NCBI GenBank assembly: GCA_017549285.1
Contig: JAFYVE010000014.1
Coordinates: 1 to 64,000 of the forward strand
Length of the DNA: 64,000 nucleotides
Source: Clostridia bacterium
GTDB taxonomy: Bacteria > Bacillota > Clostridia > Oscillospirales > Acutalibacteraceae
Direction of reading: 5' to 3'
Below, piece after piece: positions 51,827 to 64,000 of the stretch. The stretch's first letter is position 1. Each line of letters starts with the position of its first letter. The position numbers were made by a program, and so were the translations under genes. Below the pieces are notes generated by a model. That model did no database searches and was not told where the DNA came from. It saw nothing but the letters and a program-made list of their open reading frames with translations.

Positions 51827-53026
51827 TTACCTCTCTTTTTTAATATCAATATTTTTGTTAGGTTTCTCTTTTCGGACAGTTTTCAGCACATCCGAGATAA
51901 ATGCTTTTACTTTTTCAGGCATCAGCCTCAACGCCTCAAGATACGGAGCACAGACTTGTTCAAGTTCATGAAGCCTTGCACTCAGTCTGTTTATACTGCT
52001 TTGCAACTCCCAATTTCTTTTTCGAAGCCTTTCATTTTCACCCTCAAGGTCAAAAATTTTACTTCTTGCTGCAACGGACTGTTTCGCCATATTACTCAGG
52101 TCATTGAAATCTTCACTTGAAATTGTGACTTTGCCCGTAAGCGTTTTCTTGCCCATACCGTCAATCTCGCTGAATGTTTTATGCATGGTATGAATTTCAT
52201 CGTATCTGACTTCTTCTGTCTGTAATCGTTCTTTGATTTTCTCAAGCCTCTTTTTATCCTGCTGAATCTCATATTGCAGACAAGACAGATGCTCAGCCGT
52301 ACTGCCTTTTTCGCCACGGAGAAAATCATTAAAACCGGCTCTTTGCATATGATTGAAGAAATCATCCTGTAGAATACTGTAAGAGGGAATCAGCACAGGC
52401 TTGCCCTTATCGTTGAATATGACATTACCGTTTTCATCTACCGCCTGAGGTGACTTCCACTTCTTTGAATGGCTTATCTGATTGACGGTTTCTTTCACAG
52501 TACCTACAAGAGATTTATCCTTACACCGCTTTGTCCACAGTATTTGCTTTTCTACAACAGGCAGAGCTACAAGGTGCATATGATAGTGATACACAGGTTT
52601 TCCGTACTGTTCTGTGAGAGCGACATTCAGTTCATCAGCATGCATTACGGCAGAGATGATATTCTGTTCACCATACAAGGCTACTGCAAATCTGTATGCT
52701 TCTGCATAAAACTCTTTGGCATATTCATAACCGCCGTGTGTTTCAAAGTAGTCTGTGTTGACATCGAATATCATTTCATCAAAGACTTTTGCATCAGCTT
52801 TCAGACCTCGCATACATACCTTCTTTTCGGCTATGAGCTTATTCAGTAGTTCGTTGTAGGTCAGTTCACCGCAACTCTTGAAATGCACATTCATATCACA
52901 CCGAGCCGTATCAACATTCATGTTGGCATAGTTTTCATTCTTTCTCTCGTTGTGCCTTTCACACTTACCGATTGTACTTTGTGTATGAGTGACAACTCTT
53001 GCTACACTATAGTTTTTCTTTGACAT
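51827..53026 (-). CDS. MobV-family relaxase (Mob/Pre)
   Basis: A 399-aa plasmid mobilisation protein that would nick oriT and lead the strand into a recipient. The N-terminus SVARVVTHTQSTIGKCERHNERKN resembles Mob/Pre motif I. HADELN and the histidine cluster PVYHYHMHLVALP form the metal-binding motif III. A long coiled coil follows (about 245-370). The ribosome site lies in aaggaggtaaaacctATG. An oriT-like inverted repeat lies 110-200 nt upstream, where MobV oriTs normally occur. Confidence 0.9.
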   Translation of the reverse strand: MSKKNYSVARVVTHTQSTIGKCERHNERKNENYANMNVDTARCDMNVHFKSCGELTYNELLNKLIAEKKVCMRGLKADAKVFDEMIFDVNTDYFETHGGYEYAKEFYAEAYRFAVALYGEQNIISAVMHADELNVALTEQYGKPVYHYHMHLVALPVVEKQILWTKRCKDKSLVGTVKETVNQISHSKKWKSPQAVDENGNVIFNDKGKPVLIPSYSILQDDFFNHMQRAGFNDFLRGEKGSTAEHLSCLQYEIQQDKKRLEKIKERLQTEEVRYDEIHTMHKTFSEIDGMGKKTLTGKVTISSEDFNDLSNMAKQSVAARSKIFDLEGENERLRKRNWELQSSINRLSARLHELEQVCAPYLEALRLMPEKVKAFISDVLKTVRKEKPNKNIDIKKER

Positions 53027-53131
53027 AGGTTTTACCTCCTTTCTGCATTACTGCTTTATTTGTTCCGCACTTTTTCAAAGTACGTAACCCACTATGACAC
53101 TTTCAGCCCATTAGGTCTGCAAAGATGTCAG

Positions 53132-53208
53132 TGAGCTCTGCGAGGCTCATAAACTAAAGTTTCTCGCTTATCAAGGGAGCGACAAACTTTAGTTGCGGTA
53201 TATACCGC
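53132..53208. other. Candidate oriT upstream of the MobV relaxase
   Basis: A 17-bp inverted repeat with one mismatch, AACTAAAGTTTCTCGCT (53152-53168) and AGCGACAAACTTTAGTT (53178-53194), surrounds a 9-nt loop. A perfect 14-bp palindrome GCGGTATATACCGC (53195-53208) follows, and a TGAGC/GCTCA pair (53132-53149) precedes it. The dense stem-loops next to the mob start and the ACTTTAG/TATA content resemble MobV origins (pMV158/Tn4451 type). The nick site is not assigned. Confidence 0.7.
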
Positions 53209-53339
53209 AGACGAGCTTCGCTATGTAAGGGTGGCTGTAGTATCTTTTGTGCATAGCTTCATTTGTGGGGGCAGTTATTATATAGATAAACTGCCTCTAC
53301 AAGTAATGGGAATAAGCCACATAAAATTGTTCCTGATTT

Positions 53340-53446
53340 TCAGAAATACTTTTCAGAAAACAAAAAAGCCGTCACATAGACAGCACAAATAGCGGGAAGA
53401 CATTTCATCCTCTCGCACAGTTTGCACTGAAACTATGTAACGGCTT
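53340..53446 (-). promoter_or_regulatory. Attenuator-like leader with short ORF before the mob operon
   Basis: On the minus strand, AAGCCGT.ACATAG (53433-53446) pairs with its complement (53366-53379) and is followed by TTTTTTG, so it can act as a terminator in the leader. A 22-codon frame (53408 to 53340) starts MKCLPAICAVY and runs across the downstream arm of the stem and the T-run. A second ATG 5 nt later, better spaced from GAGAGG, gives a Cys-rich 16-residue frame (MSSRYLCCLCDGFF...). Which is translated is unknown. Ribosome position could decide whether the mob operon is read. Confidence 0.55.
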
Positions 53447-53476
53447 AAAATTTAAGCACTGATTGTCCGTATGTTA

Positions 53477-53510
53477 CTGACCGAGTATTGGACTATACTT
53501 TTTCGGTCAG
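53477..53510. other. Stem-loop in the mob leader
   Basis: CTGACCGA/TCGGTCAG perfect 8-bp stem with inner partial pairing (AGTAT/ATACT). It lies between the consensus promoter and the attenuator hairpin. Confidence 0.65.
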
Positions 53511-53602
53511 ATAATATGTGTTGGCATAAAGCCAATAAGTAAAAAATATGTGTTTCAGTTTGTATTCAGTTGTAGGGTAAATACATTATTTACCAATTTA
53601 CT

Positions 53603-53631
53603 ATTATAGAGAACATTTGTTCTTTTGTCAA
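53603..53631 (-). promoter_or_regulatory. Perfect promoter overlapping a LexA-box-like palindrome
   Basis: Minus strand: TTGACA, 17-nt spacer, TATAAT, both perfect. The spacer contains AGAACAAATGTTCT, whose core GAAC-AAAT-GTTC fits the Firmicutes LexA/DinR box (GAAC-RNRY-GTTC). Binding there would block the promoter of the mob leader, predicting SOS induction of mobilisation. Confidence 0.7.
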
Positions 53632-53769
53632 TGCTTTTCTGCAAATTTCGTGCCGTTTCACCTGAAATAGTTCCTGCCCCGGAATCACACCGCAGCGTTG
53701 CCTCGCTCATATCATCGCAAAGTCGTATCACTTTCAGACGGTCATTCAGTTGTCAAGGTGCATAAACGC

Positions 53770-53810
53770 AAAAAAGTCCTCACCTCCGATGAACAGAGGA
53801 AAGGACTTTT
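53770..53810 (-). terminator. Minus-strand terminator hairpin
   Basis: AAAAGTCCT/AGGACTTTT outer stem with inner CTC/GAG, then a T-run on the minus strand. Confidence 0.75.
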
Positions 53811-53835
53811 ACCGTCGATATCACGCAAGACAAAC

Positions 53836-53891
53836 AAAAAAACACCGCAGAAATAAGTACAGATAGCCTCTGTTCTTATCTTCATACGGTG
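53836..53891 (-). promoter_or_regulatory. Second attenuator-like hairpin with leader ORF
   Basis: Minus strand: CACCG...CGGTG enclosing a long imperfect stem (ACAGA/TCTGT, CTTAT/ATAAG), then TTTTTTT. A frame opening at 53885 begins MKIRTEAICTYFC and runs through the stem. It resembles the first leader in having an AIC element and a U-tract-encoded FLF, although the latter follows from the terminator itself. It may be the left-over control region of a lost cargo gene. Confidence 0.5.
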
Positions 53892-53959
53892 CTTGGGTAG
53901 TCAATAAATATTGCTCCGCTTACGCGCTACAAAGTTATTAAATATCAAATTGTGCCTTA

Positions 53960-53988
53960 AGTATACAGAACTGATACATACTTGTCAA
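53960..53988 (-). promoter_or_regulatory. Consensus promoter upstream of the second attenuator
   Basis: Minus strand: TTGACA, 17-nt spacer, TATACT. It lies just past the 3' end of the ApeA-like gene and fires toward the mob genes. The region 53,027-54,028 otherwise contains no protein gene. Confidence 0.7.
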
Positions 53989-54028
53989 TAGATTTTTGCA
54001 AATAAATGTTCGTGTTGATATGATTTTT

Positions 54029-55615
54029 TTATTTTTTTCCAAAAATGTTTTTTTTGAAAATTTTATTAAGAATGCTTACTTTTTGTTTTCCATCTGTCTC
54101 TTTGTTTTGCAATGAGCTTGGGTGTTCAAAAGGACTATCATCTTCATTTCTCAAGAACATTGTTTGAAAATGAAGTTCGCTATCAAAAGCAAGTATTTTT
54201 CTAATTAACTCCTTTTCAATACCCATATGTTTAAAAAGAATGGCGACGATAGTGGCTTTTAATATATTGATGGAATCTAAAATTTGACCAAATTCCAAAA
54301 CGCCTGAATTGTCCAGCTTATAATGAGAATAAAAATTTCTTGTATCACTCAATTCCTTAAAATATAACTCGACTAATTCTTCGTTAGATTTATCTTTAAT
54401 TTGAGTTGTATCCCTTCTTAAATTTTCTACTGAAACAGCATTGTTGCTTATTATTTGTAAATATTGCTCATCTATTTCTTTTAATCTATGAGATAAAGAA
54501 GTCTTTGAAAGAAATCCGGAAGCAATCCAATTAGCAATTTCATCTTTATGAGAAGAATTGCATTTCCAATCAGGAAGCACAGTTTTGATTGTTTTTTCAA
54601 ATAACAATTTCCCTTCTTCTGTAAATAATAAATTTTTAATTTCTTTTTTTACAGTATTTATTGCGTTTTTTAATTTAGTTTTAGCTTCTTCATCACCAGA
54701 AATGCGAGTATGATACCCATCAAGAATTCTCATATATTCTACAAAAATTTCTTCAGCAAAAATACAGCTTTTATTATTTACTGAAAAATAGATTCTTCTA
54801 AGCAGAGCAAAAGTATCATCAAAAAAGAAATTTCTCCAATTAGAATAATAATATTGTAACTTATCTAAGACAATATATAAATAAGTCCGCGGAGTTTCAA
54901 TAATGCTTTTATTCGTTGTGTTATATGAAAAATCCTTATTAAAATATAACCAGCTATATACTTCTTGATTCTCAATAGAAAGTCGTATATCATCTACAGT
55001 ACTAACAGAACCTATTAACAGTCCTAAAAATTGCATCAAACATTCAATGTCAGACATTACTGTTTCTATACCTTGGCTTTTATCGTATTTAACTGAAATG
55101 CGGGGTTCTTGATTAATTGTTATAGATGTTCTATCGTCATTTGCCAAACTTTTTTCAAAAGTTTTTGTTTCAAAATATATTTCAATATGTGGATTGGCTT
55201 CATGAATAATTATTGGATTTAAGTTTTCTTCTGCTGCAGCAAGATTTCCCGAAATTGTATCTGTATAAAAAACTGTCTTTATACCTAACCAGTTAATCAA
55301 TTCAGGAATAGAAAAAGAAAATTCCACAACACCAGAGATGTTAGTCCCTTTGGAAAAACTAAAATTTTGCATTAATACATAAAACACCCTATGAGAAGAA
55401 GTATAATCAAGTAATCGTTTATTGATACTTCTTGCTGTTCCGTTCACAAATACCTTATAACTGCGATCACCATCATTGCCTATAAATGTTGTTGGAAATA
55501 CTTCTCCATGGAAACGGCTGTAAAACTCAACAGAATTACCATCAATAATCAGTTCGGCAACTTCTTTCTTTTGAGGATTGCTTTCCTTAAACCACATTCC
55601 TATGTGTCTCTCCAT
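54029..55615 (-). CDS. ApeA-like HEPN anti-phage protein
   Basis: A 528-aa protein. The N-terminus (IGMWFKESNPQKKEVAELII, then a beta-rich 300 residues) looks like the ApeA N-terminal domain. The helical C-terminal part holds the HEPN RNase motif SDTRNFYSHY with Arg426 and His431 (R-x4-H). ApeA proteins are single-gene abortive-infection systems thought to cut RNA on phage infection. ATG 55615 has AAGGAG 8 nt away; the GTG three codons upstream overlaps that site. Last gene of a five-gene minus operon. Identification is by pattern and needs a profile search. Confidence 0.75.
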   Translation of the reverse strand: MERHIGMWFKESNPQKKEVAELIIDGNSVEFYSRFHGEVFPTTFIGNDGDRSYKVFVNGTARSINKRLLDYTSSHRVFYVLMQNFSFSKGTNISGVVEFSFSIPELINWLGIKTVFYTDTISGNLAAAEENLNPIIIHEANPHIEIYFETKTFEKSLANDDRTSITINQEPRISVKYDKSQGIETVMSDIECLMQFLGLLIGSVSTVDDIRLSIENQEVYSWLYFNKDFSYNTTNKSIIETPRTYLYIVLDKLQYYYSNWRNFFFDDTFALLRRIYFSVNNKSCIFAEEIFVEYMRILDGYHTRISGDEEAKTKLKNAINTVKKEIKNLLFTEEGKLLFEKTIKTVLPDWKCNSSHKDEIANWIASGFLSKTSLSHRLKEIDEQYLQIISNNAVSVENLRRDTTQIKDKSNEELVELYFKELSDTRNFYSHYKLDNSGVLEFGQILDSINILKATIVAILFKHMGIEKELIRKILAFDSELHFQTMFLRNEDDSPFEHPSSLQNKETDGKQKVSILNKIFKKNIFGKK

Positions 55616-55646
55616 ATTGTGCACTCCTTATCTAAAAAACAATTGT

Positions 55647-56432
55647 TTAATATCCTTTCAACCATTCAACAGATTGTTTCAATCCTTCAATGGTTTTTGT
55701 TTCTAAAACCACACGACAGTTTTGCTCTTTTGCAAGACTAATATATTTTTCAATATCCATTTCACCTGTACCGAGTGCAAGGTGATTTTTTCTGCCTTTT
55801 GCATCGTGCAGATGAATATGATGCAAACGGTCTTTGTGTTTCATAATGAATTCTTCATCTGTACCGCCTATACCGTGATTATGTCCGACATCAAAAGTCA
55901 AGGCAAAAACTTTACTTTCTAAAAGCAGTTCAATGGCTTCTTTCTGAAATTCCTCATATCCGTCACTGTTTTCAATACATATTTTTATATCATTTTCCCC
56001 GATAGCAGATTCACACATATTCCTGAAATCAAAAATACTTTTAAGATACTGCTCTTTGTATTCCGAAAAAAGAAGCACTTTTCTGTCAGGCAAAGTGAAA
56101 TATACACCTTTAGCCATATGCATATTTAACACCTTAATATCAAGTTGCTTTGCAATTTTTATGGTATCCGCAACAGTCTTTTTATAGGCTTCTGCAACAT
56201 AAGTATTGAAATCGCTTATATTCAGATTTTCATCAAGGTGAATTGTGTAGTAAATGCCGTATTTATCAGCAATGCTTTTGAAAAATTTCACATCAATTTT
56301 ATCAAGCTGATATTGTGGTAGATTCATATTAAGTTCAATATAATTAAGTCCTAATTCTGCACATAACTTTGCACATTCTTCAAGTATGCTTGTTTCAATC
56401 AGTGTGGGCATGCCACAATTATGTAATTTCAT
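55647..56432 (-). CDS. Sugar phosphate isomerase/epimerase-like TIM barrel
   Basis: A 261-aa xylose-isomerase-like (AP endonuclease 2 superfamily) barrel. Likely metal ligands lie in KICIENSDG, TFDVGHNHG, HIHLHDAKGRKNHLALGTGEMD and VVLETK. The family covers epimerases, isomerases and endonuclease IV; the short length and sugar-like signature favour an epimerase. Its place between two HEPN-like genes is unusual. A role in modifying a nucleotide or signal molecule is possible but speculative. Confidence 0.82.
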   Translation of the reverse strand: MKLHNCGMPTLIETSILEECAKLCAELGLNYIELNMNLPQYQLDKIDVKFFKSIADKYGIYYTIHLDENLNISDFNTYVAEAYKKTVADTIKIAKQLDIKVLNMHMAKGVYFTLPDRKVLLFSEYKEQYLKSIFDFRNMCESAIGENDIKICIENSDGYEEFQKEAIELLLESKVFALTFDVGHNHGIGGTDEEFIMKHKDRLHHIHLHDAKGRKNHLALGTGEMDIEKYISLAKEQNCRVVLETKTIEGLKQSVEWLKGY

Positions 56433-56458
56433 AATTCACCTCTGTTTGTGTCATTTAA

Positions 56459-57508
56459 TTAATAATTCAAGTTAATTATGCTTTGGATTTGTTTGCCCGC
56501 TTTGTTAAGTTCTGATATTATGTTGCTTTTTACAGTATAGTAATCTTCCGAGAAAAGCTTCTGTGTTAATCCAAACATAGGGTCACTATCAATAATATCA
56601 TTTTCTTTTAAAGAAACGCCTAATTTGTAGTGAGCCATAGCATTTCTAAAAATATCTGAATGATACTTGTCGTCCATAATAATGCTAATGTTTAAGATTT
56701 CTTTTATATCAGGTAAGAGTGCAAGTAAATAATAATATAAAATATATGCAAATCTCAATTTTGTGGATGTCTCATCAACAATAAAATTATCAACCGAATA
56801 AACTATAAAGTTTATTTGACACAGTATTGTAAAAAGTAAAAATTTATAATTATATTTATTTCCAAACGGAGATTTCACGAAACCACAGAAATCTTTTGTT
56901 GTGAAATTGAAATCGGATTTAATTTTATATGGTTCAGTAGCGTTAAAACAAGATATGTATTCTCCACCTATTTTTGCCATCTCAACAGTTTTTTCTTCAT
57001 CTGTTTTGTCAAACGAAAAAAATGGAGTAACAATTTGAGCCAAAACAGTATTATTACAAGGAACTGAATTACAATAAAAAACACCATAAATATCGTACAA
57101 ATGTAAATGCCTTGCCATTGGTTTACAAAGCGAAGAAAAGTATATATCACTTTTTACGTAGTTATCATATAGTATGCTGTTCAAATTTGCATATCCTTTT
57201 TCAAAGAGTTTTATAGATTTTCTCATTTCTGAATAATATTTTTCTTCCTCATCCGTAAATGTGGGAAGTTTTAATTTTTGCTTTGATGAATTGTCATAAG
57301 CATTTACCCAATCCTCAATCCCATCAACAATCAAACCCATATATGGCATTAAAGCAATATAATAGCTTGGTGTAGATGTTTCTTGATAACACAGCAGTGT
57401 AGAAAATAATCTTAAATCATTTTGCATCAATTTAACTGCACATTTTTGCACTTTGTTTAAAGGAGCATTTGTTAAATTATACTTTTCTGTATCGTGATTA
57501 ATTGACAC
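56459..57508 (-). CDS. Uncharacterised protein with HEPN-like R-x4-H motif
   Basis: A 349-aa, mostly helical, AT-rich gene product. Near the C-terminus, DIFRNAMAHYKLG carries Arg288 and His293 in the spacing of HEPN ribonucleases (R-N-x3-H), the same motif pattern as the ApeA-like protein two genes on. No other domain is recognised. The start is probably GTG 57508 with GAGG upstream; a TTG two codons earlier is the alternative. It might be a second RNase effector or a HEPN-fold partner. Confidence 0.6.
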   Translation of the reverse strand: MSINHDTEKYNLTNAPLNKVQKCAVKLMQNDLRLFSTLLCYQETSTPSYYIALMPYMGLIVDGIEDWVNAYDNSSKQKLKLPTFTDEEEKYYSEMRKSIKLFEKGYANLNSILYDNYVKSDIYFSSLCKPMARHLHLYDIYGVFYCNSVPCNNTVLAQIVTPFFSFDKTDEEKTVEMAKIGGEYISCFNATEPYKIKSDFNFTTKDFCGFVKSPFGNKYNYKFLLFTILCQINFIVYSVDNFIVDETSTKLRFAYILYYYLLALLPDIKEILNISIIMDDKYHSDIFRNAMAHYKLGVSLKENDIIDSDPMFGLTQKLFSEDYYTVKSNIISELNKAGKQIQSIINLNY

Positions 57509-57517
57509 ACACAAACC

Positions 57518-58147
57518 TCATTTCTTATGCAGAATATGCCACACATCATCACCGACAAATCCACTTTTTCTATACAAAGCTTCAGGATTAGTCAAATTAT
57601 CAACCTTACCCGAAACGGTTGCGAAATCTGCAACGCCTTTCATTCTGAACAGCAGTTCCGTCACTATAAACTGTCCGATTTTCTTGCCTCTGTATTGCGG
57701 TAATACTTGAATCCATTCAAGGATAAGCTCTTTTGCTTCTGCATCAAAATCTGCTATGCCGCAACCAACATATTTGTTCGTTTCTTTTTCTTTGACCACA
57801 ACCCATAGGTCTGCATTGTAAACAGGCGTCTTGGTATAACTTTTGATAAGGTCTTTGTTTACAGATATATCCATATATGAATCGTTTATTATCTGTACGA
57901 TTGCTTTAGTATCTTTCCGTGTTGCTGTGACAATCTCAAAATCATCAGATGTGATTTTCGGTATTTCTTTGAGCGTGTGATGCAGACGAAAATATTTTTC
58001 ATCAGTATAGTCTGATAAGATATCTGCACTAAAATCCTTATCATGTAAAATCTTCATTTCAGGCGGTATCACAATATTTTTTGCTTTCCAATACGGAATT
58101 GAAAGGGTGCCGCAAGGGTTATTTAAGTATTCAGTAAGTGTAATCAT
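57518..58147 (-). CDS. GNAT-family N-acetyltransferase
   Basis: A 209-aa protein with a GNAT core in its C-terminal 140 residues. LILEWIQVLPQYRGKKIGQFIVTELL is the acetyl-CoA-binding motif A (Q/RxxGxG/A variant RGKKIG), and ALYRKSGFVGDDVWHIL is motif B. The N-terminal 70 residues are an extension. Second gene of the attenuator-controlled operon, 8 nt after the phosphatase. The substrate is unknown; antibiotic, peptide or small-molecule acetylation are all possible. Confidence 0.85.
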   Translation of the reverse strand: MITLTEYLNNPCGTLSIPYWKAKNIVIPPEMKILHDKDFSADILSDYTDEKYFRLHHTLKEIPKITSDDFEIVTATRKDTKAIVQIINDSYMDISVNKDLIKSYTKTPVYNADLWVVVKEKETNKYVGCGIADFDAEAKELILEWIQVLPQYRGKKIGQFIVTELLFRMKGVADFATVSGKVDNLTNPEALYRKSGFVGDDVWHILHKK

Positions 58148-58155
58148 GATTTTCT

Positions 58156-58758
58156 TTAAATTCCTTTTGTATGTTCGTCAAAATTAGCTTTTATAACTCT
58201 TCTTTCTGTGTCACTCACACTCCAAATGTGAATACCTGTGTCAGCGGTATTGAAGAAAAACTTACAGTCAACAGGCATCTCAAACAGTGAACGGTACAAC
58301 TGATTTATCATTCCACCGTGAGAAACAATAGCAACAGTTTCATCAGCTTGAGATTCACCAATAACTCTTGAAAGTGCATTTTCAGCTCTTTGTCTGAACT
58401 CAACCTGAGATTCTTGTCCGTAAACAGCTTTATCAATAGGCAAATCAGGAACTTCAGGATACTTTTCTCTTACAACCGCTCTTGGCAAGCCTGCAAGAAG
58501 CCCGTTATTAAATTCCATCAGGTTCTCATCAAAAACAATGGAGATACCTGTTTTTTCTGATAAATGTCCGGCTGTTTGTTTCGCCCTTGTTAAGGTGCTT
58601 GCGTATATTTTAGAGATATTATAATTGTTTGCAACATGCTCTGCCATAGCTTCAGCTTGTCTGTGGCCTCGTTCAGTTAATGCGAAATCTGCTCTGCCTT
58701 CGTGTACATCAAGCAAATCTGCTTCTGATTCGCCATGACGGATAACTAAAAGTTTCAT
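58156..58758 (-). CDS. Histidine phosphatase family protein
   Basis: A 200-aa phosphoglycerate-mutase-like phosphatase. It has LLVIRHGESEAD, YASTLTRAKQTA, FDENLMEFNNG and the second His in VAIVSHGGMINQL, all canonical. First gene of the five-gene operon behind the leader-peptide attenuator; GGAGG lies just upstream of the ATG. The substrate is not predictable. Confidence 0.9.
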   Translation of the reverse strand: MKLLVIRHGESEADLLDVHEGRADFALTERGHRQAEAMAEHVANNYNISKIYASTLTRAKQTAGHLSEKTGISIVFDENLMEFNNGLLAGLPRAVVREKYPEVPDLPIDKAVYGQESQVEFRQRAENALSRVIGESQADETVAIVSHGGMINQLYRSLFEMPVDCKFFFNTADTGIHIWSVSDTERRVIKANFDEHTKGI

Positions 58759-58772
58759 ATTACATACCTCCG

Positions 58773-58955
58773 ATAAAAAATTAAGGCACCTCCGAAAGTA
58801 TACGGAGATGCCAATAAGTCCTGAAAGATATATTACATCAATCGCAAACGGACAAAACGGCTCTCCAAGTCATAAGATTAAGATTCATTGTCATTTTGTC
58901 CACCTGCCTTTCAGTAATTTTATATAATTATACTCTTCTGCACCAAGAAAGTCAA
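58773..58955 (-). promoter_or_regulatory. Promoter/leader-peptide/terminator attenuator, copy 1
   Basis: On the minus strand: promoter TTGACT-17-TATAAT (58955-58927), ribosome site AAAGGCAGGTGG, then an 18-codon ORF (58894-58838) reading MTMNLNLMTWRAVLSVCD. A terminator hairpin GGCATCTCCG/CGGAGGTGCC (58812-58785) with a T-rich tail ends the module. GGACAAAA at the ORF start pairs with TTTTGTCC near its end (58894-58901 with 58850-58857), so the start codon lies in a stem. Copy 2 at 62.3 kb keeps the same parts in the same order. Transcription into the histidine-phosphatase-to-ApeA operon would depend on leader translation. Confidence 0.8.
58838..58894 (-). CDS. 18-aa leader peptide, copy 1
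   Basis: ATG at 58894 after AAAGGCAGGTGG, ending in TGA. It shares MTM at the start and AVLSVCD at the end with copy 2, while the middle eight residues differ. Because the shared ends coincide with the RNA stem, conservation may reflect RNA structure as much as peptide. Probably functions in cis by ribosome occupancy. Confidence 0.65.
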   Translation of the reverse strand: MTMNLNLMTWRAVLSVCD

Positions 58956-58999
58956 TATTATGAAAATATGTTAATATCCGCAAACTACTTTTTTTGCAA

Positions 59000-60544
59000 T
59001 TAATAGTAATATTTAAAATCCTCAAATGTAATTTCAATTTTCTTTGAATACTTTTCTATATCGATTTTCATTGGAGAAGTAAATGAATTGAAATCTTTAT
59101 TTGTGATTGCTGTTTTTACTTTTCCGTTGTAGTATTCACAAAAACTAGTAACATCATATTCTGAAAACTCTTTATCTCCAATAGTAACATTTGAAAGTAA
59201 TGCAATAGCCGAAAATTTAAGTGATTCAATACTTTCACGTTCCCAAGCATTTAATAGATTCCCGTAAGCATCAAGCACTTTGGTTGCAGAAATTTTTATA
59301 TCATTTGCTATAACCATATAATTTACAAAAAGGCTTATTGGTTCATCTATTGGTGGGTATTCTTGAAGCTGCTCTTTTTGTCGTTTCAAAGAATATAAAA
59401 ACTCAAAAATAGCATATTTTTTCACTTGTGATATTTCTTCGTTTTTCTTTTTTCTAAAGCCAATTGAAAAAATCAACAATGCAATGCTCATCACTAAAGA
59501 TACTGAAAAAATGTATGTAAGTATATCTTGCATTCTCGGCACTACAATTGAAAAATTAAATGTTAGAAGGTCTTTAATTGAAACATCTGAATTTGTTAAT
59601 ATGAGTCCTATAACACTACCAATAACTGCTATTATATTGGCAAATAAATAATAATTTGAACGCTTCATATAATTATCTCCAATCTGCATAGATAAATGAT
59701 GGTTAAGCTTCTTTAAATTCTCTTTCAAATCATCGGCACTTAAACTAACGAAGAGCGTATTAGAAATATTTTTGCGTACAGCTGTAACTTTAGATAAGTT
59801 TATGCCACAAAAAAATAATAGCTGCAATTTCATTCTAAGTTTTTGTTTAGCTCCATCTTTAATTCTGATAAACAGTTGCTCATAGCCGTTATATAGAGAT
59901 AACCCATATACAACAGGCATATTTAATATCAACAAAGCTATAGGGAGAATAAATGATTTTAAAACATCTTTATTAAAAAATGTTTCAGGAGAAGAAATGG
60001 TGTTATATATGGCATAAATTACAATTATAATTCCCCACAATGTTATCAACCCATTGAAAAAATTTTTTGCAGGTTTATGTTTCTTTTCTTTTTCAGATAA
60101 CGCATAAAGAAAAGAAATTATAACGGTCAAGGGGATTAGTATTATTTCTGCTATTAAACTAAATGTCCAAAAATCAATGAGAAACTCAAATAAGGTGATT
60201 ACCTTTATATTCTTTTTGAATAGTTCAAAAAAGAACCTATGATCTTTCGCTTTATCAATTGCTTTGGCAAATAGTGGTAACTCGACAAAAACAACCCAAA
60301 AGATTGTATCTTTAAGCAATGAGATATCCCAAAAATTTATCCATTTTAATAAACCAATAACGGCAACAAGAAAACTTATAAATACTACATAAAAGACAAC
60401 AAACTTCTTGCAAAATAAAATTGGTAAAGCTGTTTTTAAGAATTCGTGTGCAGGTTTTGTAAACAACAATATTGAAATCACCAATATTCCCCAAACACCA
60501 ATAGCAATTTCTCTATTATTAAAGATTTCTAAAATAGTATCCAC
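59000..60544 (-). CDS. Polytopic membrane protein of unknown function
   Basis: A 514-aa, Phe/Ile/Lys-rich protein starting at GTG 60544 behind a near-perfect GGGAGGTGAT. Roughly seven to eight hydrophobic helices cover residues 15-215 and 300-370; the last 130 residues are soluble and helical. No family is recognised. It lies between tnpV copy 1 and attenuator copy 1 and has no equivalent in the mirror half of the island, so it looks inserted. Membrane proteins of this form occur in defence islands, but no function is assigned. Confidence 0.65.
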   Translation of the reverse strand: MDTILEIFNNREIAIGVWGILVISILLFTKPAHEFLKTALPILFCKKFVVFYVVFISFLVAVIGLLKWINFWDISLLKDTIFWVVFVELPLFAKAIDKAKDHRFFFELFKKNIKVITLFEFLIDFWTFSLIAEIILIPLTVIISFLYALSEKEKKHKPAKNFFNGLITLWGIIIVIYAIYNTISSPETFFNKDVLKSFILPIALLILNMPVVYGLSLYNGYEQLFIRIKDGAKQKLRMKLQLLFFCGINLSKVTAVRKNISNTLFVSLSADDLKENLKKLNHHLSMQIGDNYMKRSNYYLFANIIAVIGSVIGLILTNSDVSIKDLLTFNFSIVVPRMQDILTYIFSVSLVMSIALLIFSIGFRKKKNEEISQVKKYAIFEFLYSLKRQKEQLQEYPPIDEPISLFVNYMVIANDIKISATKVLDAYGNLLNAWERESIESLKFSAIALLSNVTIGDKEFSEYDVTSFCEYYNGKVKTAITNKDFNSFTSPMKIDIEKYSKKIEITFEDFKYYY

Positions 60545-60610
60545 TTAATCACCTCCCTGCATTTAATGAATATTATAACATAAAATTACAAGTTTTTCTA
60601 CCACAGTGTA

Positions 60611-60644
60611 AAAACAGCGATAAGAATAATCTTACCGCTGTTTT
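60611..60644. terminator. Bidirectional terminator after tnpV copy 1
   Basis: AAAACAGCGATAAGA/TCTTACCGCTGTTTT stem with one mismatch, A and T flanks on both strands. Confidence 0.8.
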
Positions 60645-60647
60645 CCT

Positions 60648-61013
60648 CTAATTGTATATTAACTCTGTAATCACTATTTCCATTGACCTAGCCTCAATAT
60701 TCTGCATACGGTATATCCATTCCATCTGATTTTCTTCTTTTAGTTGTTCTGTTATACCCTCAGAATTTTTCATTTGCTCAACAAGAGTATCAAACATATC
60801 ACAAGCCTGATTTTCCACCTCAGCACAGTGCTGATAAAGTTTGCCTTGAGTAAGTAGTGTTGTAAATACTAACTTCTTGTTTTTTTGCAAATAATCTTTG
60901 TGCAACATACCCCATTTCCCAAGGGTAACACTTGCCTCTTCAGGCGATAATACGAGATTTGGAATGAGATAATCTCCAACATTTCGATAGCTGATAGAAT
61001 TTTTGTTTGACAT
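60648..61013 (-). CDS. tnpV: Transposon-encoded protein TnpV, copy 1
   Basis: A 121-aa protein of the TnpV family first named in Tn4451. YRNVGDYLIPNLVLSPEE, LGKWGMLHKDYL and LLTQGKLYQHCAEVE, with EQLKEENQMEWIYRMQNIEA, fit the family. The function is unknown. ATG 61013 follows AAAGGAGGA; the longer open frame is an artefact. It is a close paralogue of the plus-strand copy at 61,960, with equal length and more than 70% visible identity by eye. Confidence 0.85.
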   Translation of the reverse strand: MSNKNSISYRNVGDYLIPNLVLSPEEASVTLGKWGMLHKDYLQKNKKLVFTTLLTQGKLYQHCAEVENQACDMFDTLVEQMKNSEGITEQLKEENQMEWIYRMQNIEARSMEIVITELIYN

Positions 61014-61097
61014 AAAAAGTCCTCCTTTAAATTTTGTACTTTCATTGTACAAATTAAAGAAGGATTTGTCGAATGTGCAAATATTAATAAAAAAGAA

Positions 61098-61127
61098 AAC
61101 CAAGAAAGATTTTACTCTCTCTTGGTT
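61098..61127 (-). terminator. Weak terminator between two small minus-strand genes
   Basis: AACCAAGA/TCTTGGTT stem with a T-rich run on the minus side. Confidence 0.55.
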
Positions 61128-61169
61128 ACTTCTTTTCCTTCTGCAATGCACGGTATCTAATGACTGTTT

Positions 61170-61514
61170 TTATAAACTGTCCTTAGCAACCCCGCGCATT
61201 TCTTCGGGGACATTTATTTTGAGAATCTCACCGTTTTCGGTTTCAAAAGAAACAGTAAACACCCTTTTTGATTTGGGTCTTTTTGTTCCCGTCATCTCAG
61301 CATAACAAACCATATCAACAACGATTGCCCTGAACTTTTCTGTTAATGTTTCAGGCTCGATAAACATTTTATCAATTTCAGCATCAATACCGTCCGGATG
61401 CTCTTTCTTGTACTTTTTATGCTGTATGATACCTGCTGTAACAATTGACAAAACAGAAATCACAATAGCAGCAATTATTATCAAAGATGAATTTTCAGAT
61501 ATAAACTCAGCCAA
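61170..61514 (-). CDS. Small membrane protein, DUF2500-like, possibly truncated
   Basis: A 114-aa protein with an N-terminal helix (SLIIIAAIVISVLSIVTAGII). A small domain follows, in which FRAIVVDMVCYAEM and VFTVSFETENGEILKINVPEEMRGVA resemble DUF2500-type YxVTFE..G..... sheets. In that family a further strand follows, so this copy may be cut short, perhaps by the tnpV insertion. TTG start with AGGTGA 8 nt upstream. Confidence 0.6.
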   Translation of the reverse strand: MAEFISENSSLIIIAAIVISVLSIVTAGIIQHKKYKKEHPDGIDAEIDKMFIEPETLTEKFRAIVVDMVCYAEMTGTKRPKSKRVFTVSFETENGEILKINVPEEMRGVAKDSL

Positions 61515-61672
61515 AACAGTTCACCTGCATTCTGTTCATATTTTTGAATAAAAAAAAGACTGAGCTATTGCTCAGTCCTGGTGCGAGTATTCATAACACA
61601 AGTTGTTCTCCGGCAATACATATTCTATCTTTCGTACTCTGATATATTTCCTCAGATATGGAGGAATACATA

Positions 61673-61951
61673 ATGTCAAATATTATTGAAGATTTCTATT
61701 ACGGCAACATTGAGCCGCAAGAAGTAAATTCTGAATTAACACCTAAACTCAAGAAGAAATTGAGTAGCCTTGCAGAGAAAGAAGAACAGCTTACCGCAAG
61801 ACTGACCGGTGAAGATAAGGAACTGTTTCAAAGCTATGTAAGTGCTTATATTGAGTTTTCTACTACAAGTAATGCCGACAGCTTTATATCAGGCTTCAGA
61901 CTCGGTGCAAGATTTACATACGATACATTTGTTAAGAATACGAAAGGATGA
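61673..61951 (+). CDS. DUF6809-like small protein
   Basis: A 92-aa protein. The pattern NIIEDFYYGNIEPQE at the N-terminus and FISGFRLGARFTYDTF at the C-terminus matches small helical proteins common in Clostridia mobile elements (DUF6809). ATG 61673 has GGAGG (61660-61664) upstream; the earlier in-frame ATG is inside that site. It is followed within 9 nt by tnpV copy 2 and is probably cotranscribed. Confidence 0.7.
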   Translation: MSNIIEDFYYGNIEPQEVNSELTPKLKKKLSSLAEKEEQLTARLTGEDKELFQSYVSAYIEFSTTSNADSFISGFRLGARFTYDTFVKNTKG

Positions 61952-61959
61952 ATACTATT

Positions 61960-62325
61960 ATGAAAAACAATACAAATATTCAATACAGACAGGTTGGAGA
62001 TTACAATATTCCTAACCTCAGATTACCACACGAAGAAGCAAATATCACCCTCGGCAAATGGGGTATGTTACATAAAGACTATCTTTTCAATCATAAGAAA
62101 GTGTTATTTACAACACTACTTACCCAAGGAAAACTTTATCAGCATTGTGCTGAGATCGAAAATCAGGCACGAGATATGTTTGATACTCTTGTTGAACAGA
62201 TGAAAGAAGCTGAAGGTGTAACCGAGCAACTGAAAGAAGAAAATCAGTTGGAATGGATATGCCGTATGCAGAACATAGAATCAAGGGCAAGAGAAATTGT
62301 TACAACTGAACTAATTTATACATAA
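61960..62325 (+). CDS. tnpV: Transposon-encoded protein TnpV, copy 2
   Basis: A 121-aa paralogue of the minus-strand copy with the same blocks: YRQVGDYNIPNLRLPHEE, LGKWGMLHKDYL, LLTQGKLYQHCAEIE and EQLKEENQLEWICRMQNIES. ATG 61960 is chosen over 61948 because AAAGGATG then lies at a workable distance. It immediately precedes attenuator copy 2. Divergence from copy 1 shows that the duplication is not recent. Confidence 0.85.
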   Translation: MKNNTNIQYRQVGDYNIPNLRLPHEEANITLGKWGMLHKDYLFNHKKVLFTTLLTQGKLYQHCAEIENQARDMFDTLVEQMKEAEGVTEQLKEENQLEWICRMQNIESRAREIVTTELIYT

Positions 62326-62341
62326 TGCCACTTTCAAAATA

Positions 62342-62524
62342 TTGACTTTCTTGGTATAGAAGAGTATAATTATATAAAATTACTGAAAGGCAGGTGGACA
62401 AAATGACAATGACTATTATTTTACGAAATCGAAGTGCCGTTTTGTCCGTTTGTGATTGATGTAATACAATCTTTCTGAATTAGCAAGGCATCTTCGATTT
62501 TCGGAGGTGCCTTAAATTTTTTCA
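62342..62524 (+). promoter_or_regulatory. Promoter/leader-peptide/terminator attenuator, copy 2
   Basis: Promoter TTGACT (62342-62347), 17-nt spacer, TATAAT (62365-62370); AAAGGCAGGTGG; leader ORF 62403-62459; 13-bp terminator stem (62485-62497 with 62501-62513) and a T-run. GGACAAAA (62396-62403) pairs with TTTTGTCC (62440-62447). From -35 to leader start it differs from copy 1 at only a few positions. It drives the tandem-GNAT/GrpB operon. Confidence 0.8.
62403..62459 (+). CDS. 18-aa leader peptide, copy 2
   Basis: Reads MTMTIILRNRSAVLSVCD then TGA. Same length, start and end as copy 1, but a different middle; the ribosome site is identical. Confidence 0.65.
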   Translation: MTMTIILRNRSAVLSVCD

Positions 62525-62539
62525 GGAAGAGGTTATTTT

Positions 62540-63538
62540 ATGTATTATGTAAAGCCATTAACAGCAGATGATGTTCATTATGTAGCATCAATAATGTCTG
62601 AAACAAGAAACATTACAGCTCTCCATTCAACATATCATTCGTTGTCAGAATGGAAATATATTTTTGATGAAAATGCTTGTGATGCTGATGAAGATAACTT
62701 TTTGATTTGTTCTGATAACGATGTCTGTGCTTGGTTGAAGCTAAACGGCTTGCTAAACGCCGATACAGCTTGGATATCAATGCTTGTTGTTTCAGATAAG
62801 TATAAGCATCAAGGTGTCGGAAAATTTGCTGTTGAATATGCTTTTGAATATCTGCATTCTAAAGGATTTAATCAAATCGGAGTTCAGACAACAAAAGATA
62901 ATGTTGCCGCAATAAATCTGTATAAGAAATGTGGTTTCGATATTGTGGAACTTAAAAAGTTTAAAACAGAAGACGGCACAAAGGTAAAAGCTTATGTTAT
63001 GATGAAAACTCTGGAACCAAAGAAATATTCACTCGTGATTCCCGATGAAACTCATGAAGAAGCATATATTCAAATGATGGACAGATGGGAGTCCATTGAA
63101 GATGATATTCAACCGCAATTACTCCGAAGATACAGTGATTCACAGGGCAAAAATGTTGAATATTCAAAATGGTTAGAATGGTGTGAGGATGACAGAACCA
63201 CAGGTTCAATGTTATCAACAGGTGTTCCTTGTACATTATACTTCTTTGTGGATGATACAGGGGAAATATTCGGTGCAATTGAAATAAATCAGAAGAATAC
63301 ACACAGAGGTCATCTGCATGCAGGAATAGTGCCTTGGTACAGAGGTAAAGGGCTTGGCACAATAATGCTGAAATTGGCATTGAATATTTGCAAAGACATG
63401 GGTATGACAAGTGTTGATATTGTCCCGTATAAGTCCAACAAATCAGCTATTAAAACTATTCTCAAAAACGGTGGAATTCTAATGGATGAGTTCTATGAAG
63501 ACGATAAATGGTCACAAATGTACAGAGTATCATTATAA
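62540..63538 (+). CDS. Tandem GNAT acetyltransferase (two domains)
   Basis: A 332-aa protein with two GNAT cores. Domain 1 covers about residues 1-155 (ISMLVVSDKYKHQGVGKFAVEYA, INLYKKCGF). Domain 2 covers about 160-332 (AGIVPWYRGKGLGTIMLKLAL, AIKTILKNGGILMDEF). Both acetyl-CoA loops (HQGVG, RGKGLG) look intact. Fused GNATs occur among resistance and toxin-modifying enzymes; the target is unknown. AAGAGG precedes the ATG, which follows the attenuator by 16 nt. Confidence 0.87.
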   Translation: MYYVKPLTADDVHYVASIMSETRNITALHSTYHSLSEWKYIFDENACDADEDNFLICSDNDVCAWLKLNGLLNADTAWISMLVVSDKYKHQGVGKFAVEYAFEYLHSKGFNQIGVQTTKDNVAAINLYKKCGFDIVELKKFKTEDGTKVKAYVMMKTLEPKKYSLVIPDETHEEAYIQMMDRWESIEDDIQPQLLRRYSDSQGKNVEYSKWLEWCEDDRTTGSMLSTGVPCTLYFFVDDTGEIFGAIEINQKNTHRGHLHAGIVPWYRGKGLGTIMLKLALNICKDMGMTSVDIVPYKSNKSAIKTILKNGGILMDEFYEDDKWSQMYRVSL

Positions 63539-63550
63539 AGAGGTGTGAAA

Positions 63551-64000
63551 ATGGCAAAACGAGTTATAGTTGTTCCATATAGCGAGCAGTGGAAAGCGGA
63601 TTTTGAGACAATTAAACAGTATGTTTTACCTGCAATAAATGATGTAGTAATCGGCATTGAGCATATCGGCAGCACATCTGTTGATGGACTTTCTGCAAAG
63701 CCGATTATTGACATTGATATTGTCATTAAAGACTATTCAGTATTTGATGCTGTGGTTGAAAAGTTAGCATCTCTCGGTTACATACATGAAGGAAATCTCG
63801 GCATAAAAGACAGAAATGCTTTTGATTATCAGGGCGATGCAGATTTACCGAAACATCATTTATATGTTTGTCCTGAATTTTCAGCAGAGCTTCACAGGCA
63901 TCTTGCTTTCAGAGATTATTTGAGAAACAATCCCGAAGCCTTACAGAAATACAGCAATATAAAAGAAGAGGGTGCAAGATTATTCCCCGATAGCATAGAT
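63551..64000 (+). CDS. GrpB/UPF0157 nucleotidyltransferase-like protein (partial)
   Basis: The first 150 codons are present; the gene runs off the window. VVPYSEQWKADFETIKQYV, IEHIGSTSVDGLSAKPIIDIDIVI and HHLYVCPEFSAELHRHLAFRDYL identify the GrpB family, whose fold is that of nucleotidyltransferases, with GSTSVxGLxAKPIIDI as the active-site strand. It starts 12 nt after the GNAT gene behind AGAGGTG. GrpB proteins are often neighbours of antibiotic-modifying enzymes; the function is unclear. Confidence 0.85.
   Translation, partial: MAKRVIVVPYSEQWKADFETIKQYVLPAINDVVIGIEHIGSTSVDGLSAKPIIDIDIVIKDYSVFDAVVEKLASLGYIHEGNLGIKDRNAFDYQGDADLPKHHLYVCPEFSAELHRHLAFRDYLRNNPEALQKYSNIKEEGARLFPDSID

What the first reader, a model, noticed from the sequence alone, without database searches (positions are those of the whole stretch)
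58773..62524. Duplicated leader-peptide attenuators facing outward from an inverted tnpV pair
Two modules of about 180 nt carry the same promoter (TTGACT-17-TATAAT), ribosome site, 18-codon ORF (MTM...AVLSVCD), start-codon-enclosing stem and terminator. They sit on opposite strands and drive two different operons: phosphatase/GNAT/HEPN/isomerase/ApeA, and tandem-GNAT/GrpB. Ends of the leader are conserved and the middle is free to vary, as expected if RNA pairing plus ribosome position decide termination. This looks like a modular, translation-sensing control cassette for resistance or defence cargo that I do not recognise.
Basis: partly seen in the sequence, partly recalled or inferred. Interest (0 to 1): 0.88.

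Follow-up and report, generated by a model that had tools for sequence, protein, structure and literature searches.

The report
Ribosome-arrest switch for resistance genes
Two copies of a short RNA switch, each with a promoter-like sequence, a tiny leader gene and a transcription stop signal, stand before two gene clusters here and recur in dozens of gut-bacterium genomes before resistance-like genes; the RNA pairing is kept through matching base changes, and the switch is predicted to turn its genes on when a ribosome is held at the start of the leader, as some antibiotics would likely cause.

Summary
The two modules are real (62342-62522 +; 58772-58955 -) and belong to a family of leader-ORF attenuators in gut Clostridia that matched no Rfam family and appeared in none of my paper searches. 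Its 3' half (segment B) is complementary to the terminator's 5' arm and loop, and this pairing covaries (44 hand-picked divergent members: mean -14.75 vs -9.2 kcal/mol permuted, 0 of 5000; 25 hold-out members: -13.5 vs -8.1, 0 of 5000). The stem over SD and start codon covaries too, and its 3' arm has an alternative partner in the linker. Together they make a four-segment attenuator: anti-antiterminator, antiterminator, terminator. Folding with a masked ribosome predicts antitermination with a ribosome on codon 1 in 41 of 44 (hold-out 24 of 25), against 16 of 44 (5 of 25) with none; the window's right-hand module is an exception (0.90 with none). Downstream genes include GNATs, ABC transporters, PF09818 ATPases, methyltransferases and one Lsa-type ABC-F. 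The logic resembles vmlR; sequence, leader length, buried start codon and cassette-like spread differ. Drug induction is untested.

The parts
62342..62370 (+). right module promoter-like sequence TTGACT-17-TATAAT
   Evidence: sequence; 38 of 44 family members have a -35/-10 pair with <=3 mismatches upstream versus 27 of 220 random 65-mers
62391..62405 (+). segment 1: 5' arm of stem P1, holds SD (62392-62397) and start codon (62403-62405)
   Evidence: fold; P1 covaries in the family
62403..62459 (+). leader ORF, 18 codons + stop, MTMTIILRNRSAVLSVCD
   Evidence: sequence; in 106 of 108 modules the stop lies between segment 2 and the terminator
62424..62438 (+). segment B: leader codons that pair with the terminator 5' arm (antiterminator strand)
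   Evidence: B:T covariation; antiterminator fold -25.3 kcal/mol, 0 of 200 shuffles as stable
62438..62452 (+). segment 2: 3' arm of P1 (codons V-L-S-V-C)
   Evidence: fold, covariation
62485..62522 (+). intrinsic terminator hairpin 62485-62513 and U run; its 5' arm and loop are segment T
62540..63538 (+). first controlled gene: tandem GNAT acetyltransferase
   Evidence: PF00583, two stretches
63551..64000 (+). second gene: GrpB family, runs past the window end
   Evidence: PF04229
58927..58955 (-). left module promoter-like sequence TTGACT-17-TATAAT
   Evidence: sequence
58892..58906 (-). segment 1 of the left module (SD and start codon 58894-58892)
   Evidence: fold
58838..58894 (-). left leader ORF, 18 codons + stop, MTMNLNLMTWRAVLSVCD
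58859..58868 (-). segment B of the left module (UUGGAGAGCC)
   Evidence: pairs with GGCAUCUCCG of the terminator; versus the right copy the pair A62432-U62494 is G58865-C58805, a double compensatory change inside the window
58845..58859 (-). segment 2 of the left module
   Evidence: fold
58772..58812 (-). left terminator (hairpin 58812-58785) and U run
58156..58758 (-). first gene of left operon: histidine phosphatase superfamily
   Evidence: PF00300
57518..58147 (-). GNAT acetyltransferase
   Evidence: PF13508, PF00583
56459..57514 (-). protein of unknown family
   Evidence: no Pfam match at E<=0.001, no PADLOC match
55647..56432 (-). xylose-isomerase-like TIM barrel protein
   Evidence: PF01261
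54029..55624 (-). ApeA-like protein with HEPN domain (anti-phage type)
   Evidence: PF18862, PF18739; PADLOC Cas13-ApeA 2.8e-07, PDC-S58 3.4e-10

Best explanation
Each module is a four-segment transcription attenuator with a promoter-like sequence and a short leader ORF, in which a ribosome arrested on the first few leader codons likely opens the stem over the SD and start codon and would let leader codons pair with the terminator's 5' arm, so that RNA polymerase reads on into the resistance-like genes. Shown by sequence and covariation: segment 1 (SD + start codon) pairs with segment 2; leader segment B, just 5' of segment 2, pairs with the terminator's 5' arm and loop; segment 2 also has a partner in the linker before the terminator; the ORF runs through B and segment 2. 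Inferred: with no arrest, stem 1:2 (anti-antiterminator) holds B away and the terminator forms (off); a ribosome held over segment 1 removes stem 1:2 without covering B, the B:terminator pairing forms first, and transcription continues (on); a ribosome lying over B lets the terminator form. The sensed event is then arrest at about codons 1-4, with little dependence on the peptide. The frequent second codon Thr (ACA) fits antibiotics that arrest after a Thr/Ser/Ala residue or right after initiation, but this is the least certain step.
For: B:T pairing: 44 divergent members -14.75 vs -9.20 permuted (sd 0.44, 0 of 5000), 36 of 44 better than 95% of leader shuffles; hold-out 25 of 29 parsed, -13.48 vs -8.09, 0 of 5000; 22 with leader peptides not seen before -13.51 vs -8.09, 0 of 5000. 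P1: 7 of 12 pairs change on both sides, 96.2% of cells paired; hold-out 7 of 12, 94.9%. Segment 2:linker -7.36 vs -6.02, 0 of 3000; hold-out 1 of 5000. Masked-ribosome folding: codon 1 >0.5 in 41 of 44 vs 16 of 44 with no ribosome; hold-out 24 of 25 vs 5 of 25; with terminators swapped between members 64 of 132. Stop codon between segment 2 and terminator in 106 of 108, hold-out 25 of 25. The AVLS peptide is lost in divergent members while the pairing is kept. Second residue Thr 30 of 44 vs 33 of 975 background ORFs, hold-out 14 of 25. A hold-out member precedes an Lsa-type ABC-F ribosome-protection gene. Logic precedent: vmlR (PMC9226507, abstract and sections 18 and 22) and bmrCD (PMC4191407, abstract, passages and section 15).
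Against: No expression, ribosome-profiling or 3'-end data. The folding model is an equilibrium model without pseudoknots or kinetics; for the window's own right module it gives 0.90 antiterminator even with no ribosome, and its segment 2:linker pairing is weak (-2.2). A ribosome at the stop codon also scores on in 27 of 44 and 12 of 25. With the ribosome placed by a fixed rule over B, 15 of 44 and 10 of 25 still score on, although the distance profile dips to 0.20. B:T is weak or no better than shuffles in some members (8 of 44 above 0.05, e.g. L184; 6 of 25). B and segment 2 share at most about a base with each other's partners, so P1 and B:T could coexist as a pseudoknot.
Confidence: 0.68

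Rival explanations
1. Ribosome-free on-switch: P1 and B:T form together as a pseudoknot when the leader is not translated, so loss of initiation (not arrest) turns the genes on and translation through B turns them off.
For: B lies in the P1 loop and the pairings barely overlap; the linker between segment 2 and the terminator is 21-48 nt (median 32) and the loop 5' of B 14-77 nt, long enough on paper; the right module scores 0.90 with no ribosome and about 0 with a ribosome at codons 6-8.
Against: Segment 2 has a covarying second partner in the linker that excludes P1, which a P1-containing on-state would not need; without a ribosome most members model as off (28 of 44, 20 of 25); in vmlR and bmrB, blocking leader translation lowers, not raises, expression (PMC9226507 section 22; PMC4191407 section 15).
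Confidence: 0.17
2. Peptide-specific arrest: the nascent leader peptide (e.g. its R-x-R or AVLS part) is recognised in the exit tunnel with a particular drug, as in erm or cat leaders.
For: Within the main classes the C-terminal (K/R)S.AVLS is strongly conserved; the right leader holds R-N-R.
Against: Divergent members keep the RNA pairing with unrelated peptides, and the conserved residues are the codons that pair with segment 1 and the terminator; my first search pattern itself fixed the VLS codons.
Confidence: 0.08
3. Amino-acid-starvation attenuator of the trp/ilv kind.
For: Same four-segment layout.
Against: No run of one codon in the leaders seen and no biosynthetic gene among the 50 downstream proteins examined.
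Confidence: 0.04
4. A promoter with a constitutive leaky terminator, no regulation.
For: Strong terminators alone are common.
Against: Does not predict leader-terminator covariation, the SD-sequestering stem or the stop-codon position.
Confidence: 0.03

Closest known systems
Bacillus subtilis vmlR leader (PMC9226507; abstract and sections 18 and 22 read)
   Same: Anti-antiterminator, antiterminator and terminator; a ribosome arrested on a leader ORF by an antibiotic prevents the anti-antiterminator; controls an ABC-F resistance gene.
   Different: vmlR has a 3-codon ORF (MIN) in a bulge with the SD in single-stranded RNA; here SD and start codon sit inside the anti-antiterminator, the ORF is 16-40 codons and runs through the antiterminator strand, and the unit precedes many unrelated genes.
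B. subtilis bmrB-bmrCD (PMC4191407; abstract, passages and section 15 read)
   Same: Ribosome-mediated transcription attenuation before a two-subunit ABC exporter; several members here precede ABC exporters.
   Different: In bmrB the ORF is 53 codons and the terminator lies within its coding region; here the terminator lies beyond the stop codon in 106 of 108.
Clostridioides difficile cplR and Enterococcus lsaA leader ORFs (PMC10201436, passages seen)
   Same: Short ORF, terminator, ribosome-targeting drugs; one member here precedes an Lsa-type gene.
   Different: Consensus ORFs MR[I/M] and MAGN of 3-4 codons; cplR combines transcriptional and translational attenuation.
trp-type attenuators (recalled; described in PMC4191407 passages)
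   Same: 1:2 / 2:3 / 3:4 layout coupled to ribosome position.
   Different: No regulatory codon run; downstream genes are not biosynthetic; the start codon itself is in strand 1.

Membership tests
Ribosome-mediated transcription attenuators with anti-antiterminator (vmlR-like logic) | Intrinsic terminator between leader and first gene | tested here: met
   Found in 108 of 108 parsed modules (modules without one in the fetched stretch had been dropped: L013, L014, L049, L063, L069 later); helix covaries 10 of 10 pairs
Ribosome-mediated transcription attenuators with anti-antiterminator (vmlR-like logic) | Antiterminator overlapping the terminator 5' arm | tested here: met
   B:T covariation, 0 of 5000 permutations in each set
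Ribosome-mediated transcription attenuators with anti-antiterminator (vmlR-like logic) | Anti-antiterminator that excludes the antiterminator | tested here: inconclusive
   P1 covaries and segment 2 has a second covarying partner, but P1 and B:T themselves barely overlap, so a pseudoknot is not excluded
Ribosome-mediated transcription attenuators with anti-antiterminator (vmlR-like logic) | Leader ORF on which an arrested ribosome would break the anti-antiterminator | tested here: met
   SD and AUG lie in the 5' arm of P1; masking model
Ribosome-mediated transcription attenuators with anti-antiterminator (vmlR-like logic) | Induction by ribosome-targeting drugs | not testable with these tools
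   no expression data
vmlR / cplR / lsaA leader families proper | 3-4 codon ORF of their consensus | tested here: not met
   ORFs of 16-40 codons, other sequences
bmrB leader | Terminator inside the leader coding region | tested here: not met
   stop codon before the terminator in 106 of 108
trp-type amino-acid attenuators | Run of cognate codons in the leader | tested here: not met
   leader peptides, read by eye
Any Rfam family | Match to one of 4227 covariance models | tested here: not met
   no match on either module in window 52000-64000 at E<=5, none on the modules of 8 relatives at E<=0.1
Translational attenuators (erm, cat type) | Leader structure hides the SD of the first resistance gene | not tested
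   only transcription termination was modelled

The most novel reading that the evidence does not exclude
A 'peptide-blind' arrest sensor that gut Clostridia use as a portable promoter cassette: because the start codon itself is a strand of the switch, any drug, toxin or phage that freezes ribosomes within the first codons turns on whatever gene has been placed behind it, from acetyltransferases, efflux pumps and ribosome-protection ABC-Fs to operons carrying the anti-phage protein ApeA, so the genes behind these leaders form a catalogue of undiscovered translation-stress resistance functions (for example the PF09818 ATPases).
Probability: 0.35. Interest if true: 0.86.

Novelty: new variant of a known kind. 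Interest (0 to 1): 0.73.

Why it matters
If right, one RNA element marks resistance and defence genes in gut Clostridia by how they are regulated rather than by homology, which gives a way to predict function for unknown families found behind it (PF09818 ATPases, unnamed GNATs, the ApeA operon here). It would also give a clean test of whether ribosome arrest at the first codons, with no special peptide, is enough to drive antitermination, and whether some anti-phage genes are induced by translation arrest.

Tried and rejected
Rejected: a further helix P0 (GAAAG before the SD with CUUUC in the linker), attractive in the window and its near relatives, but with no covariation in the family (observed equals permuted, 1513 of 3000). 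A tie to tnpV (13 of 108 loci). Members on plasmids, phages or viral contigs: no blastn match with two different module queries; pattern scans of viral contigs gave two stretches judged chance (no SD or VLS frame), one chance match without a module and none. Occurrence elsewhere in the phylum: the one weak hit besides the window's own genome (L203, E 4.5e-6, 2 of 398 genomes counting the own one) is a terminator without a leader, so weak E-values of model R1 are not trusted alone. A peptide-recognition model and an amino-acid attenuator (see rivals). The permutation test of P1 is biased because segment 2 was found as the best complement of segment 1; I rely instead, and those alignments are fitted to the model structure. 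(A3, 51 rows) includes terminator-only rows (L156, L157, L200), duplicates and opposite-strand hits; one search is the cleaner count.

Rows dropped: of 113 pattern hits in the loci and window, 75 distinct ones passed the SD and VLS filter; 4 of these were rejected as chance (L024, L038, L042, L044) and 2 lacked a terminator in the fetched stretch; 3 more (L049, L063, L069) were left out, giving 66. Of 48 loci given to, 42 were parsed (left out: L156, L157, L200 without leader; L163, L167, L169 duplicates). 66 + 42 = 108. The 44 'representatives' were picked by hand from the 108. Of 29 hold-out loci 25 were parsed (L223, L224, L225, L231 were not).
Full report
What is there. The two modules were confirmed at the given places and aligned: 45 bases of promoter-like sequence, the SD, the start codon, the VLS codons and most of the terminator are shared, while the leader centre and parts of the terminator differ. 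Both fold far better than shuffles. Right operon: tandem GNAT, then GrpB. Left operon: histidine phosphatase, GNAT, a protein without family, a TIM-barrel isomerase-like protein and an ApeA/HEPN protein.

It recurs. The spaced pattern of the P1 stem found 103 stretches in one-genome-per-species contigs, almost all genuine ones being in records titled Clostridia, Oscillospiraceae, Lachnospiraceae, Eubacteriales, or gut Bacilli; 75 distinct hits pass an SD and reading-frame filter, 71 after four chance cases are removed. A covariance model (R1, 65 sequences) gives E<=1e-3 in 67 of 398 genomes of the same family and E<=1e-7 in 40 of 398, the own genome counted; 11 of 391 in the class sample, 5 of them at E<=1e-7; in the phylum sample only the own genome and one hit that is a bare terminator. 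A second model from divergent members (R2) finds E<=1e-4 in 8 of 391 class and 33 of 335 order genomes, 18 of the latter at E<=1e-7, own genome counted in each. Some genomes hold several copies (six matches at E<=1e-3 in G350). The window's own genome has a third copy before an ABC-transporter gene (L162).

The leader middle is a pairing strand. In the right module leader bases 62424-62438 (CGAAAUCGAAGUGCC) are complementary to the terminator 5' arm and loop (GGCAUCUUCGAUUUUCG, one bulge). In the left module UUGGAGAGCC pairs with GGCAUCUCCG. Between the two copies in this window one A-U pair (62432-62494) is a G-C pair (58865-58805). Three large leader classes (RNRS/TWRA, LIKS, VKSA) have three different terminators, each complementary to its own leader; in 52 non-redundant members the own pairing averages -11.7 kcal/mol versus -6.95 for leader shuffles and -8.1 with terminators of other classes, and 32 of 52 beat 95% of shuffles. 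In the short LIKS class that first test was weaker (9 of 21), because the terminator stretch was cut at the loop. With the loop end included, 44 divergent members give -14.75 versus -9.20 (sd 0.44), 0 of 5000 permutations as low, and 36 of 44 beat 95% of shuffles. An independent set, found afterwards with a model that does not contain this pairing, gives -13.48 versus -8.09, 0 of 5000, 19 of 25 beating 95% of shuffles; with leaders already seen left out, 22 members, same result.

The start-codon stem and its alternative. P1 pairs CAGGUGGACAAAAUG with CGUUUUGUCCGUUUG. In 44 divergent sequences 7 of its 12 modelled pairs change on both sides and 96.2% of cells are paired; in the 29 hold-out sequences 7 of 12 and 94.9%. 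Sliding the partner by 1-3 columns drops total pairing to 34-50% in both. The 3' arm of P1 also complements part of the linker before the terminator (for example GUCCG with CGGAU, GUCCA with UGGAU): -7.36 versus -6.02, 0 of 3000; hold-out 1 of 5000. It is weak in the right-hand window module (-2.2) and present in the left (-6.4). A further upstream helix was tested and not supported.

Ribosome position. The stop codon falls between segment 2 and the terminator in 106 of 108 modules and 25 of 25 hold-outs, though loop lengths and frames vary. Folding the transcript just before the terminator's 3' arm appears, with a 30-nt ribosome footprint masked (footprint size recalled; PMC9226507 section 22 reports a toeprint 16 nt from the start codon), the mean chance that the terminator 5' arm is held by the leader is 0.38 with no ribosome, 0.73 with the P site on codon 1 (41 of 44 above 0.5), 0.20 at its lowest when the ribosome lies a few codons before segment 2, and 0.52 at the stop codon (27 of 44). 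Hold-out: 0.29, 0.73 (24 of 25), 0.38 with the ribosome placed by rule over B, 0.47 at stop. With terminators swapped between members, codon 1 gives 0.47 and 64 of 132 above 0.5. For the left window module the values are 0.00 without ribosome and 0.85 on codon 1; for the right one 0.90 both without and on codon 1, falling to about 0 at codons 6-8. So the equilibrium model does not show the right module as off by default; folding order or pausing would have to do that. The antiterminator alone folds at -25.3 (right) and -21.7 (left) against terminators at -18.0.

Codon 2. Threonine is the second residue in 30 of 44 representatives (ACA in 26) and 14 of 25 hold-outs, against 33 of 975 ORFs with an SD-like motif in the fetched DNA. 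It is kept where it no longer can pair with segment 2, so it may matter for arrest. Chloramphenicol and linezolid arrest best after Ala, less after Ser or Thr, in the penultimate position (PMC8987054, passages). This is a lead, not a test.

Cargo. Of 50 downstream proteins examined (cluster representatives and hold-out genes chosen by me, nearest or longest ORF downstream): 17 GNAT-type, 7 ABC-transporter (exporter-like), 5 PF09818 ATPases, 2 LytTR response regulators, 2 methyltransferases, 2 GrpB, one each of MFS, S66 peptidase, HAD hydrolase, nucleoside phosphorylase family, TIM-barrel isomerase-like, HNH, TMEM164 and ABC-F, 2 with matches below the cut-off only, 5 without match. The ABC-F (L222, cut off by the locus end) scores 747.9 bits for Lsa family (cut-off 750) and 492.6 for ribosomal protection ABC-F (cut-off 380).

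Comparison. vmlR (PMC9226507) has the same three-structure logic with a 3-codon ORF and a free SD; bmrB (PMC4191407) has its terminator inside the ORF, and blocking its translation lowered expression and abolished lincomycin induction; cplR and lsaA leaders have 3-4 codon ORFs (PMC10201436, passages). No Rfam family matches the modules. Paper searches, of which I saw listings except for the papers named, showed no description of this leader; the held library lacks many journals. I therefore call it a new variant of ribosome-mediated attenuation: the mechanism class is known, the RNA family, its buried start codon and its use as a cassette before many unrelated genes are, as far as searched, not described.

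Noticed in passing
L075, L205, L215, L221, L226, L232 (downstream genes): PF09818 'ABC-class ATPase' proteins, for which my paper search listed no functional study, stand behind five of the 50 downstream genes scanned (L205, L215, L221, L226, L232; L075 shares the leader of L215). Their regulation suggests a role in translation stress or resistance.
   Followed up: partly
L162 (own genome, contig 49, match 2041-2184 -): Third, diverged copy of the module in the same genome, before an ABC-transporter gene.
   Followed up: partly
L222 1501-1665 -: Member of the family before an Lsa-type ABC-F ribosome-protection gene, the clearest link to ribosome-targeting drugs.
   Followed up: yes
L177, L181, L182, L186, L188, L189, L191, L195: Related modules precede LytTR-type response regulators (Pfam run for L177 and L189 only; the others cluster with them by blastp), so the switch may also set off a signalling cascade.
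   Followed up: partly
L001, L035, L085, L095: Near-identical leader and terminator in different genomes stand behind quite different promoter regions, as if the promoter is exchanged independently.
   Followed up: no
L086 1223-1363 +: Natural variant in which the leader stop codon is changed and the ORF runs on through the terminator.
   Followed up: no
window 51827-53026 -: Mob_Pre relaxase gene (PF01076) near the left operon, so the region is probably a mobile element.
   Followed up: no
window 59000-60544 -: 514-aa membrane-type protein without any Pfam match above cut-off between tnpV and the left module.
   Followed up: no
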